Assembly (NCBI GenBank): GCA_017848855.1
Contig: JAFIHF010000041.1
Location: forward strand, 1 to 64,000
Length of the DNA: 64,000 bases
Origin: Rhodanobacter denitrificans
GTDB lineage: Bacteria > Pseudomonadota > Gammaproteobacteria > Xanthomonadales > Rhodanobacteraceae
Reading direction: 5' to 3'
Of this stretch, positions 1 through 53,307 are shown one piece after another. Below the pieces are notes generated by a model. It was given only the letters and a program-made list of their open reading frames with translations. It was not told where the DNA came from and did no database searches. Position 1 is the first letter of the stretch, and each line of letters opens with the position of its first letter. Both the position numbers and the translations under genes were made by a program.

Positions 1-262
1 GCCGCTGCCGCGGCCCGAGCTACTTCTCTTTTGCTTGTCCAAAAGAGAAGTAGCCAAGAGAAAACGACACCCCGCGGCGACGCTTTCCGTCCCTCCATGG
101 ACGGAAAGTGCGTGAGCCGTGGCCGGGCTTTTCGGCCGGGCATCCTGCCCGGTCGAAAAGGCGAGCCCATCCGTGGGCTCGCCCGCTGCGCGGCCTGATC
201 GTCCACGGCTCACCGCCGCCGAGGGGCCCCCGGGAAAAGCGGCGCGCTCCTGCGCGCAGAAG
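1..262 (+). repeat. Multi-hairpin intergenic element, copy A1 (cut by window edge)
   Basis: The stretch contains no credible gene. It begins with a GC box (GCCGCTGCCGCGGCCCGAG) followed by a perfect 13-bp stem at 20-53 (CTACTTCTCTTTT, loop GCTTGTCC, matching arm). Further stems follow: one at 128-160 opening with CTTTTCG and closing with CGAAAAG, one at 161-182 (GCGAGCCCA, loop TCCG, TGGGCTCGC), and a terminal stem at 241-257 built on GCGCGC. The same order of boxes recurs at 397-680 (minus) and 52596-52948 (plus), and in shortened form at 53090-53250 (minus). Arm sequences differ between copies but stay complementary. The upstream part of the first box lies outside the window. Confidence 0.75.
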
Positions 263-269
263 CCAAAGC

Positions 270-315
270 CCCCTCACCCCGACCCTCTCCCCCAAGCGGA
301 GCTTGGGGGAGAGGG
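270..315. repeat. CTCTCCCC-type palindromic repeat
   Basis: CCCTCACCCCGACCCTCTCC runs into a long hairpin, CTCTCCCCCAAGC with a GGAG loop and the complementary arm ending GGGGGAGAG. The same CTCACCCC-N-CCTCTCCCC plus GGGGAGAGG design recurs at 5432-5470, 5530-5571, 16412-16460, 43456-43495, 43555-43592 and 52535-52575. This is a REP-like dispersed palindrome. Here it lies between the two inverted copies of the multi-hairpin element. Confidence 0.7.
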
Positions 316-342
316 AGTTGGTGCGGCGCGCGCTTCGGCTTT

Positions 343-396
343 GCTCGGCTCGGCTCGGCTTGGCTTTGCTGTTGCTGTTGCTGTTGCTGTTGCTTC
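343..396. repeat. Short tandem repeats (GCTCG)3 and (GCTGTT)4
   Basis: Three GCTCG units at 343-357 are followed by GCTTGGCTTT and then four exact GCTGTT units at 368-391. The array abuts the terminal stem of copy A2. The other copies carry only AGAAGCAACGGCC or AGAAGCC at that place, so the expansion is specific to this copy. Confidence 0.7.
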
Positions 397-680
397 TGCG
401 CGCTGGGAGCGCGCTGCTTTACCTGGGGCCCCTATGGCGCGGCGGGCGGGTGGAGGAAAGTCCGCAGGATGGCCCGCACGGATGCGGGCCAGTTTTTCGC
501 CGGCACACGGAGGTGCCGTCGAAAAACCCCGGAACCCGCCCGCGCACCCGCAGGGCAGGATGCCCGGAGGGCGCGCCATCGGGGTGCCGTTTCTCTTTGG
601 TTCCTTTCTCTTTGGGCAAGCAAAGAGAAAGGAACTCGGGCCGCGGCAGCGGCTCGAAACCGCTTTGTTCCTTGCGAAAG
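397..680 (-). repeat. Multi-hairpin intergenic element, copy A2 (inverted)
   Basis: Read on the minus strand this has the same box order as copy A1. The AAAGCGGTTTCGAG box and the GC box are followed by stem 1 at 601-634 (TTCCTTTCTCTTTG against CAAAGAGAAAGGAA), a linker, stem 3 at 492-527 (GTTTTTCG against CGAAAAAC with CGGCAC inside), stem 4 at 470-491 (TGGCCCGC against GCGGGCCA) and the terminal GCGCGC stem at 397-418. Compared with A1 both arms of stems 1, 3 and 4 have changed together. About 66 bp remain between this element and the 3' end of dnaE, and no gene is visible there. Confidence 0.75.
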
Positions 681-5431: not shown

Positions 5432-5571
5432 GCCTCCTCCCCTGCATGCAGGGGAGGATTGAGGTGGGGTCAATGCTTGCGGTTTAGCCATTCAAAGCGC
5501 GCTTCGACGGCAGCACTTTCGCCAGCGTGTCCCCTCACCCCAGCCCTCTCCCCGGAGGGGAGAGGGAGAAA
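5432..5571. repeat. Inverted pair of CTCTCCCC-type palindromes
   Basis: One unit at 5432-5470 (CTCCCCTGCATGCAGGGGAG then GATTGAGGTGGGG) and one at 5530-5571 (CCCCTCACCCCAGCCCTCTC then CCCGGAGGGGAGAGGG) face each other across about 60 bp. They occupy the lpxB-rnhB junction. Each unit folds on its own, and the two together could form a larger cruciform. Confidence 0.65.
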
Positions 5572-16217: not shown

Positions 16218-16528
16218 GGCTCGAAGCGAGGTGATCCTTCTGCCCGTCGGGGAGACACATCGGCAGGACTGCCGATGTGTGCGGCGTGAGCCGCCCGAAG
16301 GGTGAGCGCCAGGGATGGCGCGAATACAGGTGCCTCGAAGAGGCGGATGAGGGGCGGGTGCTCGCCTTGGGGCTGCTTCAGGCGAGCTTCGTTGCAGGGT
16401 TGTCGCAAGATTGGCCCCTCTCCCTTTGCCCTCTCCCCGGCGGGGAGAGGGGAACGCGTGGTGCCGTGCGGGTTCGCAGTTCCGGGCGCAGTCGCAGGCC
16501 GGGCGCTGCGGTTCCGCCGCGGCGCCAA
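16218..16528. repeat. uppS-frr spacer with two repeat types
   Basis: No gene is visible in these 311 bp. At about 16249-16320 there is ACACATCGGCAG-GA-CTGCCGATGTGT followed by GCGGCGTGAGCCGCCCGAAG. In reverse complement this resembles the 72-bp unit duplicated at 25828-25971 (shared CGGCAGTCCTGCCG core and CCCTTCGGGCG/GGGCGCC part). At 16412-16460 lies a CTCTCCCCGGCGGGGAGAGG palindrome of the dispersed family. The palindromes separate the cdsA-uppS unit from frr. Confidence 0.6.
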
Positions 16529-29220: not shown

Positions 29221-29335
29221 CCATTCCGGCGCAAGTTGGACTGCCCCTTTCACGCTGCGCCTAGAATGGCCATCCGAACGCCGGGCGCCTTCGCCGGCTG
29301 GCGCGGTTCCTGTTGAAGGGCACAGAGGTGTGCGT

Positions 29336-43436: not shown

Positions 43437-44603
<1,167 letters not shown>

Positions 44604-52575: not shown

Positions 52576-52595
52576 CTTTTGCTTTTCTTGGTTTT

Positions 52596-52948
52596 CGCAA
52601 GTTTCAAAGCGGTTTCGAGCCGCTGCCGCGGCCCGAGCTACTTCTCTTTTGCTTGTCCACGCACGCGCAGGAGCGCGTGCGAACGGCGAAGCCGGCCCGA
52701 AGGGCGGAGGGCATGGATGCCCGGAGTCAAAGAGAAGTAGCCAAGAGAAAAGGACACCCCGCGGCGACGCTCTCCGGGCATCCTGCCCTCCGAGTCCGTG
52801 AGTCGGGGCCGGGCTTTTCGAGCGGGCTCCTGCCCGCGCGAAAAGGCGTTGCCCTCCCTGGCAACGCCCGCTGCGCGGCCTCTTCGTCCCCGCCTCACCG
52901 TCGCCGAGGGGCCCCGGGAAAAGCAGCGCGCTCCCAGCGCGCAGAAGC
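52596..52948 (+). repeat. Multi-hairpin intergenic element, copy A3
   Basis: The box order of copy A1 is repeated in full. The AAAGCGGTTTCGAG box and the GC box precede stem 1 (CTACTTCTCTTT...AAAGAGAAGTAG), whose loop carries an insertion of about 70 bp with its own GC hairpins. The GGACACCCCGCGGCGACGC linker follows. Stem 3 is at 52814-52845 (CTTTTCG outer, GCGGGC/GCCCGC inner), stem 4 at 52846-52867 (GCGTTGCC/GGCAACGC) and the terminal GCGCGC stem at 52924-52942. No gene is supported in the 780-bp gap 52528-53307. Confidence 0.75.
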
Positions 52949-53089
52949 AACGGCCAGAGCTAAGCGTCGCAAGATTCGGCTCCTCAGTTTCCAGATACGT
53001 CGCGGGGTGGCTGCTGTGGGGCGACGTGTCGACGAGCGTTGATCCAACGTCCTCGACACGGCCTGCTTGTAGGGTCGGCGGATTGAACA

Positions 53090-53250
53090 GGCCATTTCTC
53101 TGGGTTACTTCTCTTGACTCCGGGCATCCTGCCCTCCGCCCTTCGGGCCGGCTTCGCCGTTCGCCACCGCTCCTGCGATGGCGTGGGCCAGCAAAGAGAA
53201 GTGACTCGGGCGCCGGCCGGCGACCGAAACCGCTCTGTCGCTTGCGGAAG
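53090..53250 (-). repeat. Multi-hairpin intergenic element, copy A4 (inverted, short)
   Basis: On the minus strand this copy has the AGAGCGGTTTCGG box, a diverged GC box and stem 1 (TCACTTCTCTTTG...AAGAGAAGTAA). It carries the same kind of loop insertion as A3 (GGCGAACGGCGAAGCCGGCC, GGGCGGAGGGCAGGATGCCC). Stems 2-5 are absent. It faces A3 across about 140 bp, the same inverted-pair layout as A1 and A2. Confidence 0.7.
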
Positions 53251-53307
53251 CATGAGCTGTCGTGAGCGCTCTCTACTCACCCCGGCGGGGCGTGGAAGGA
53301 CGAGGGC

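What the first reader, a model, noticed from the sequence alone, without database searches (positions are those of the whole stretch)
1..680. Multi-hairpin intergenic element with covarying stems, in inverted pairs
Four copies (1-262 plus, 397-680 minus, 52596-52948 plus, 53090-53250 minus) share box order and loops, but stem arms differ and stay complementary. Stem 3 inner arms are CCGGGCA/TGCCCGG, CGGCAC/GTGCCG and GCGGGC/GCCCGC. Stem 4 is GCGAGCCCA/TGGGCTCGC, TGGCCCGC/GCGGGCCA and GCGTTGCC/GGCAACGC. Stem 1 is CTACTTCTC.../...GAGAAGTAG in three copies but TTCCTTTCTC.../...GAGAAAGGAA in A2. Paired change in several stems suggests selection on fold, or a mechanism that rewrites arms, such as template correction within the hairpin. 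Both loci hold a plus copy facing a minus copy.
Basis: seen in the sequence. Interest (0 to 1): 0.75.

Follow-up and report, generated by a model that had tools for sequence, protein, structure and literature searches.

The report
Folding two-part mobile DNA repeat
The window holds two of many copies of a roughly 560-base mosaic repeat that lies between genes in a bacterial family and keeps a branched hairpin fold although its letters keep changing, apparently because the DNA itself, rather than an RNA made from it, has to fold.

Summary
The unit is a heterodimer: an end module plus folded core A faces an inverted end module plus core B or C (67 units: 24 A-B, 43 A-C; no A-A seen). The fetched tenth of the own genome (inferred Rhodanobacter) holds 94 near-complete cores; a covariance model matches 143 of 195 family genomes. 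In 96 distinct cores of relatives, 50 of 56 pairs show two-sided change and 97% of cells pair.

DNA rather than RNA is suggested by G-U at 2.4% of cells (6S 13.5%, SRP 17.8%) and by equal folding of both strands in relatives (own copies fold about 15% better on the minus strand; the RNA controls differ about twofold). A junction mismatch (not Watson-Crick in 160 of 164 parsed cores, 49 of these G-T), TCC loops and coupled long-range arms argue against blind arm correction alone, although long-range stems are often imperfect in single copies. Two sites are empty in 9 of 9 and 10 of 11 congeners.

Best reading: a non-autonomous, mosaic, BIME/MITE-like mobile element kept for its fold as DNA and moved by an unknown enzyme; a new variant of a known kind.

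The parts
1..62 (+). Unit 1, end module E (cut at its outer end by the contig start): hairpin P0 (CCGC-TGCC-GCGG, 2-13), hairpin P1 (19-54), then box CCAAGAGAAA
   Evidence: outer boundary seen at -30 in 132 ends of the own genome
66..230 (+). Unit 1, core A: closing stem P2 (70-79 with 217-226), P3 hairpin (83-108), long-range P4 (112-122 with 203-213), P5/P6 hairpin (128-160), P7 hairpin (160-183); stem limits partly by eye
   Evidence: A1 row window:66-230
242..257 (+). Inner hairpin P8 (GCGCG-CTCCTG-CGCGC)
   Evidence: read from sequence by eye
264..386 (.). Spacer between the two halves: CCCTCTCCC-type hairpin (283-315) and short tandem runs
425..588 (-). Unit 1, core B (diverged homologue of A, inverted)
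   Evidence: A2 row window:425-588:-
600..680 (-). Unit 1, inverted end module E: P1 (600-635, TTCCTTTCTC allele) and P0, ending near 680
52594..52752 (+). Unit 2, end module E with an extra insert (about 52660-52727) in the P1 loop
52753..52915 (+). Unit 2, core A
   Evidence: (L031:1958-2120)
52981..53105 (-). Unit 2, body C: not alike to A or B, 61 hits in the fetched stretches of the own genome; contains a short inverted repeat GTGTCGA...TCGACAC (by eye)
53106..53260 (-). Unit 2, inverted end module E (P1 with insert, P0); P1 carries a C-A mismatch that recurs in C halves

Best explanation
A non-autonomous, mosaic, mobile intergenic DNA element (BIME/REPIN/MITE-like) of about 470-700 bp. 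Two inverted end modules (E: hairpins P0 and P1) flank two different inner halves, A with B or A with C. Each A or B half folds as single-stranded DNA (lagging strand, cruciform, or transposition intermediate) into a branched structure of about 165 nt with two conserved features, TCC loops and a mid-stem non-Watson-Crick junction, which I infer are read by an enzyme acting in trans. Arms change as complementary blocks, helped by recombination between copies and probably by template switching within hairpins; copies that fold badly spread less. The halves differ so that the unit does not become a long perfect palindrome. Shown: fold, covariation, scarcity of wobble, little or modest strand preference, mosaic combination of modules, the A + B/C grammar, site polymorphism. 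Inferred: ssDNA as the working form, the enzyme, gain rather than loss at the polymorphic sites, and the reason for heterodimers.
For: Copies and spread: 94 near-complete cores in the fetched stretches of the own genome (69 A, 25 B); model R1 matches 143 of 195 family genomes in 22 of 26 genera at E 0.001 or better. Mobility: downstream of dnaE 0 of 9 congeners in which the site was found carry it; downstream of pip 1 of 11 does, and in G004 the two flanking genes nearly abut, about 7 bp between stops by eye. Sharp outer boundary at -30 in 132 ends. Fold: 50 of 56 pairs with two-sided change, 1090 two-sided cells against 310 in shuffles. DNA level: GU 2.43% of cells in relatives and 0.67% in own A, against 13.5% (6S) and 17.8% (SRP) in the same family; relatives' consensus energy -85.9 plus and -86.7 minus, against -58.1/-28.2 for 6S and -42.7/-24.3 for SRP. 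Long-range pairing: own A copies are WC at P2 pair 15-151 in 48 of 67 (29.4 in shuffles), P4 pair 52-143 in 26 of 67 (13.9) and 55-140 in 47 of 67 (30.8), 0 of 2000 shuffles as high each; in relatives P2 596 of 659 cells (404) and P4 642 of 672 (458). P2 arms, 141 nt apart, have the highest association of 28 segment pairs (V2 0.70), while P3-P6 (48 nt) and P3-P7 (75 nt) are unlinked, p 0.57 and 0.71. Recognition features: P5/P6 junction WC in only 4 of 164 parsed cores; TCC within the loop plus 3 flanking bases in 91 of 94 P6 and 89 of 96 P7 hairpins of relatives. Grammar: all 67 A cores scored with an inverted partner face B (24) or C (43), and no A-A, B-B, C-C or B-C unit appears among the stretches.
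Against: No target-site duplication in 38 complete units. No enzyme identified: Y1 transposases (PF01797) have no match in G003, G011, G013 and G112, which carry the element. Single copies are often imperfect in the long-range stems: all six P2 pairs WC in 42 of 67 own A copies, both variable P4 pairs WC in only 16 of 67, and 28 of 67 have T-C at 52-143; a non-pairing segment pair (P4-5' with P2-3', V2 0.55) is second in association, so shared ancestry of copies explains part of the coupling, and shuffles ignore relatedness. Strand symmetry is not complete: own A -78.7 plus against -91.2 minus, own B -94.4 against -107.2. The GU contrast has weak points: own B has 3.45%; in pairs with two or more WC types SRP has only 2 GU of 136 cells; 49 of the 160 non-WC junctions are G-T, a pair in plus-strand RNA. 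C halves share no fold with A and their P1 often has a C-A mismatch. Site polymorphism could reflect loss.
Confidence: 0.57

Rival explanations
1. Blind arm correction: DNA polymerase template switching inside hairpins copies one arm onto the other, so complementarity is kept without any selection on the fold.
For: Few wobble or one-sided intermediates and block-wise change of arms; local hairpins are more perfect than long-range stems in single copies; the mechanism is published for hairpins (PMC8794818, passages read).
Against: The P5/P6 junction stays non-WC in 160 of 164 parsed cores between neighbours that pair in 96 of 96; loops are conserved and almost never inverted (GGA in 0 of 94 P6 and 2 of 96 P7 loop windows); arms 88 and 141 nt apart pair above shuffled expectation.
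Confidence: 0.16
2. A structured non-coding RNA, for instance a CsrA/RsmA-binding sponge read from the minus strand of core A, where P6 and P7 loops read A(N)GGA.
For: A(N)GGA on the minus strand in 178 of 190 P6+P7 loop windows of relatives, 119 of 124 own A, 48 of 48 own B; strong covariation; own copies fold better on the minus strand (-91.2 against -78.7 for A, -107.2 against -94.4 for B), and A-C mismatches, wobble on that strand, outnumber G-T in relatives, 50 to 24. The CsrA motif is recalled.
Against: Wobble scarce on either strand in relatives (2.4% plus, 1.5% minus) and equal energies there; in own A the mismatch bias is opposite, 46 GT to 10 AC; no Rfam match at gathering score; because halves are inverted, a transcript of an A-B unit carries GGA loops from one half and UCC loops from the other; no copy downstream of dnaE in 9 of 9 congeners.
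Confidence: 0.14
3. A member of the classical REP/BIME system moved by a RAYT (Y1) transposase.
For: High copy, intergenic, palindromic, paired inverted heterodimers as reported for REP dimers (PMC3733652, passages read); the own genome has two PF01797 matches, one with a stop inside.
Against: Core of about 165 nt rather than 20-40 bp; no invariant GTAG foot (P1 alleles differ there); element present without a PF01797 match in G003, G011, G013, G112, while G108 has 18 PF01797 matches and no element match.
Confidence: 0.08
4. Ordinary remnants of one recent duplication, covariation by chance.
For: Units in the window are similar in layout.
Against: 94 cores in fetched stretches of one genome, 143 of 195 family genomes, 0 of 500 shuffles reach the observed pairing.
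Confidence: 0.01

Closest known systems
REP / BIME / REPIN repeats with RAYT
   Same: High-copy, intergenic, palindromic, inverted pairs; heterodimers preferred in most GTAG and CGTC families (PMC3733652, passages); site polymorphism
   Different: Branched core of about 165 nt and units of about 560 bp, two different partner bodies, no invariant GTAG/CGTC foot seen, no consistent Y1 transposase
MITE-like enterobacterial RU repeats (PMC2759123, search listing only)
   Same: Short, dispersed, intergenic, inverted ends
   Different: No target-site duplication detected here in 38 units; inner halves form a heterodimer with a covarying branched fold
Template-switch-maintained hairpins (PMC8794818, passages)
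   Same: Compensatory blocks and near-perfect stems
   Different: Here loops are hardly ever inverted, one junction stays non-WC, and long-range stems covary as well
CsrB/RsmZ-type sponge RNAs (recalled)
   Same: Several hairpins with A(N)GGA loops on one strand
   Different: Little wobble, weak or no strand preference, dispersed polymorphic copies, no Rfam match
Integron attC sites (recalled)
   Same: Works-like analogy: folded single-stranded DNA recognised by shape with conserved unpaired bases while sequence varies
   Different: Different size and architecture; no integron context examined; analogy only

Membership tests
REP/BIME (RAYT-associated) | Palindromic unit of about 20-40 bp | tested here: not met
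   Core about 165 nt; P0-to-P0 unit median 557 bp, range 467-696, in 38 units
REP/BIME (RAYT-associated) | Invariant GTAG or CGTC foot beside the hairpin | tested here: not met
   P1 alleles differ at that position; the families were not searched for as such
REP/BIME (RAYT-associated) | Cognate Y1 transposase in the genome | tested here: not met
   PF01797 without a match in 4 element-bearing genomes among 19 searched: G003, G011, G013, G112
REP/BIME (RAYT-associated) | Inverted dimers, often hetero | tested here: met
   67 A cores with a partner, all facing B or C; 26 facing pairs in relatives, mean identity 0.65
MITE | Terminal inverted repeats with a sharp boundary | tested here: met
   E modules at both ends; conservation starts at -30 in 132 ends
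MITE | Target-site duplication | tested here: not met
   No clear excess of direct repeats in 38 units at offsets 20-49, k 2-9
MITE | Related autonomous transposon with the same ends | not tested
   Three single-ended loci were read by eye and showed host genes; no systematic search
Structured non-coding RNA | Covariation supporting a common fold | tested here: met
   alignment fitted to the model
Structured non-coding RNA | Tolerance of G-U pairs and a preferred strand | tested here: inconclusive
   Relatives: GU 2.4%/1.5%, equal energies; own copies fold better on minus by about 15%; 6S and SRP controls 13.5% and 17.8% GU and about twofold energy difference. Leans against RNA
Structured non-coding RNA | Match to a curated family | tested here: not met
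   No gathering-level Rfam match over either unit; sub-threshold matches only in 1-720
CsrA/RsmA sponge RNA | A(N)GGA in several hairpin loops | tested here: met
   178 of 190 P6+P7 loop windows of relatives, minus strand
CsrA/RsmA sponge RNA | Transcribed and bound by CsrA | not testable with these tools
   No RNA-seq or binding data available

The most novel reading that the evidence does not exclude
A family-wide class of selfish DNA whose unit is a two-part, multi-branched DNA fold: a large intergenic element with RNA-like covariation but little wobble, kept as single-stranded or cruciform DNA by an unidentified structure-reading enzyme, with an A + B/C heterodimer grammar. If so, strong covariation with little wobble and near-equal folding on both strands would be a general signature for finding functional DNA folds that RNA searches would misread as ncRNA.
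Probability: 0.33. Interest if true: 0.8.

Novelty: new variant of a known kind. Interest (0 to 1): 0.62.

Why it matters
The element shows RNA-grade covariation that many pipelines would call a non-coding RNA, yet two simple controls, wobble frequency and fold energy on the opposite strand, lean towards DNA that folds. That suggests a way to separate DNA folds from RNA folds in comparative data. With dozens of naturally varying copies in one genome, combining module by module, it also makes the question of selection versus template correction in compensatory change directly testable. It is widespread in one bacterial family, and several contigs of this draft end inside it.

Tried and rejected
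Rfam (whole window, only 1-720): nothing over the element at gathering score; sub-threshold microRNA-type matches treated as chance. RAYT/Y1 transposase as driver: not consistent with presence. Target-site duplications: none. General bias to GGA/TCC hairpin loops: outside the element 13 of 127 distinct hairpins of arm 8 or more and 6 of 51 of arm 10 or more, in a control of 1686 arm-5 hairpins not among the twelve commonest triplets (so at most 7.7%); a slight excess, far below the element's. Strand from G-T versus A-C mismatches: own A 46 to 10, own B 1 to 7, relatives 24 to 50; no consistent strand. Autonomous copy: three single-ended loci read, each runs into an ordinary host gene by eye. 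Paper searches for a prior description: searches listed none; searches listed nothing that looked like it by title and abstract start; one search found none of five Xanthomonadales names in the RepRanger main text. Searches were for CsrA, template switching and RsmA (listings only, apart from PMC8794818). Only open-licence papers are held.

Rows dropped or caps: A1 uses 67 of 69 A cores (L126 with an insertion, L035 with a deletion left out). LD keeps alleles seen in at least 3 copies. The junction test parsed 64 of 67, 21 of 25 and 79 of 105 rows (duplicates not removed). The 26 facing pairs include two loci fetched twice. One search's P1 part is invalid (pattern hit the loop) and is not used; still misparses TTTCTC alleles, so only its C-half mismatch (22 ends with one mismatch) is used. 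One search's pattern failed on most rows and was replaced. Controls use 27 distinct 6S and 17 distinct SRP sequences from the 30 best loci of 58 matching genomes each. Family and order scans scored at most 14 and 11 candidates per genome, so copy counts there are floors. Gene calls are a GC3-based heuristic of mine; 27 of 67 units lacked a called neighbour on at least one side, and 17 of 84 A features had no partner (many lie at contig ends).

Full report
What is there. Both places named in the finding were read. Searching the own genome with the first stretch gave 151 matches and with the second 146, pieces of one copy and both strands counted; a short box pattern gave 59 + 62 places, with 0 for its reversed control. 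From 111 fetched stretches and the window start I extracted 94 near-complete cores, 69 of type A and 25 of type B. Loci with identical scores in two congeners and in named records point to Rhodanobacter sp. PCA2 and sp. DHG33, so the window is inferred to be Rhodanobacter; the family name Rhodanobacteraceae is recalled.

Anatomy. The end module E starts sharply at -30 (TnnCGCAAG...CAAAGCGGTTTCG) and holds hairpin P0 with loop TGCC (three main arm alleles, 129 of 132 ends perfectly paired) and hairpin P1 (perfect inverted repeat of 9 bp or more found in 92 of 132). Core A or B (about 165 nt) has a closing stem P2, hairpin P3, a long-range stem P4, the P5/P6 hairpin and P7. DNA folding of window 66-230 and 425-588 (minus) gives z = -10.6 and -8.7. 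A different body C (61 hits in the fetched stretches) stands in place of B in many units.

Grammar. The 67 A cores scored with an adjacent inverted partner face B (24) or C (43); that script looked for B or C only, and the absence of A-A, B-B, C-C and B-C units is read from the signature list, where 17 of 84 A features have no partner. In relatives, 26 facing pairs (two loci fetched twice) average 65% identity, and in 25 of the 26 both halves match a half at another locus at least as well as each other, one as a tie; L189 is the exception. REP heterodimer preference is described in PMC3733652 (passages); avoiding a long perfect palindrome is my inference for the reason here.

Distribution and mobility. 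Model R1 matches 143 of 195 family genomes and 22 of 26 genera; in a sample of 249 genomes of the order 67 match, ten of them outside the family (best E 9.7e-18 to 9.0e-4). Downstream of dnaE none of the nine congeners in which the site was found has it; L253 has one weak match (29 bits) about 1.7 kb away on the dnaE side. Downstream of pip one of eleven congeners has it, and in G004 the two flanking genes nearly abut (about 7 bp between stop codons, by eye). Units look intergenic: 1 of 67 overlapped a called gene. Where both neighbours were called, 15 of 40 lie between convergent, 22 between co-oriented and 3 between divergent genes. Absence could be loss; I read the polymorphism as gain and turnover.

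Covariation. In 105 matches (96 distinct) from a search of 75 loci of relatives, 97.1% of cells pair (74.7% in shuffles), 50 of 56 pairs have two-sided changes, and no slid version exceeds 24. The alignment was fitted to the model, and the shuffles ignore relatedness; both favour the structure.

DNA or RNA. With GU allowed, GU is 2.43% of cells in relatives, 0.67% in own A and 3.45% in own B, against 13.53% in 6S and 17.84% in SRP RNA of the same family. Counts from folds run without GU are low in the controls too (1.28% and 0.74%) and do not discriminate. Consensus energies of the relatives are equal on the two strands (-85.9, -86.7), but own A (-78.7, -91.2) and own B (-94.4, -107.2) fold better on the minus strand; 6S (-58.1, -28.2) and SRP (-42.7, -24.3) differ far more. 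In variable pairs only, GU is 46 of 4646 (element, plus) and 76 of 4646 (minus), 72 of 459 in 6S but only 2 of 136 in SRP, a weak point of this test. Mismatch types do not favour one strand consistently. I read this as leaning to DNA, not as proof.

Selection or correction. Within the own genome P3 combines freely with P6 and P7 (p 0.57 and 0.71), while P6 and P7 are linked, so copies are partial mosaics. The two arms of P2, 141 nt apart, show the strongest association of 28 segment pairs (V2 0.70); the next is a non-pairing one, P4-5' with P2-3' (0.55). Counting pairs directly, WC states at the three most variable long-range pairs exceed shuffles (48 against 29.4, 26 against 13.9, 47 against 30.8, of 67; 0 of 2000 each), yet only 42 of 67 copies have all six P2 pairs and 16 of 67 both variable P4 pairs; across relatives P2 has 596 of 659 and P4 642 of 672 WC cells, against 404 and 458 shuffled. 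So the long-range fold is kept over evolutionary time but loosely in single copies. The P5/P6 junction is rarely WC (0 of 64 own A, 0 of 21 own B, 4 of 79 relatives among parsed rows; 49 of the 160 others are G-T), and P6/P7 loop windows keep TCC (91 of 94, 89 of 96), P3 less so (68 of 91). Template switching as described in PMC8794818 (passages) can explain blocks without intermediates but should erase that junction and invert some loops. I take selection on a DNA fold as the main cause, with correction and conversion as helpers.

Rivals. On the minus strand the loops read A(N)GGA in 178 of 190 cases, the recalled CsrA/RsmA motif; with the better minus-strand folding of own copies this is the best RNA reading, but scarce wobble and site turnover speak against it. 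RAYT mobilisation fails on presence and absence. No target-site duplication was found, so the moving enzyme and chemistry are unknown.

Noticed in passing
G000 contigs C5, C10, C13, C14, C16, C18, C21, C24 and others, first or last bases: Several contigs of this draft assembly end inside the element, so the repeat itself probably fragments the assembly and the true copy number may be higher.
   Followed up: partly
window 29254-29320: Rfam int-alpA RNA (RF02996) match on the plus strand, which may mark a nearby integrated element.
   Followed up: no
window 283-315, 5544-5566, 16429-16451, 43457-43479, 43567-43589: A second intergenic hairpin repeat of CCCTCTCCCC...GGGGAGAGGG type, often abutting or inside the element units.
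   Followed up: no
window 52981-53105 (minus) and L046, L062: Body C can be read as a short open frame of about 36 codons (ATGGCCTGTTCA...) in some copies but apparently not in others; read by eye only.
   Followed up: no
L132, right of the single E-C half: A different hairpin with ATGGAT loop (GCGGCCATGGATGGCCGC) occurs twice.
   Followed up: no
G108, 18 places: A family genome without element matches has 18 PF01797 matches, sixteen of them with nearly the same score, which looks like a recent IS200-type expansion.
   Followed up: no
L256: Downstream of dnaE in G003 two near-identical stretches separated by an N carry an isolated end-like motif (CAGAGCGGTTTCGTCGGC), possibly a relic end module or an assembly join.
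   Followed up: no
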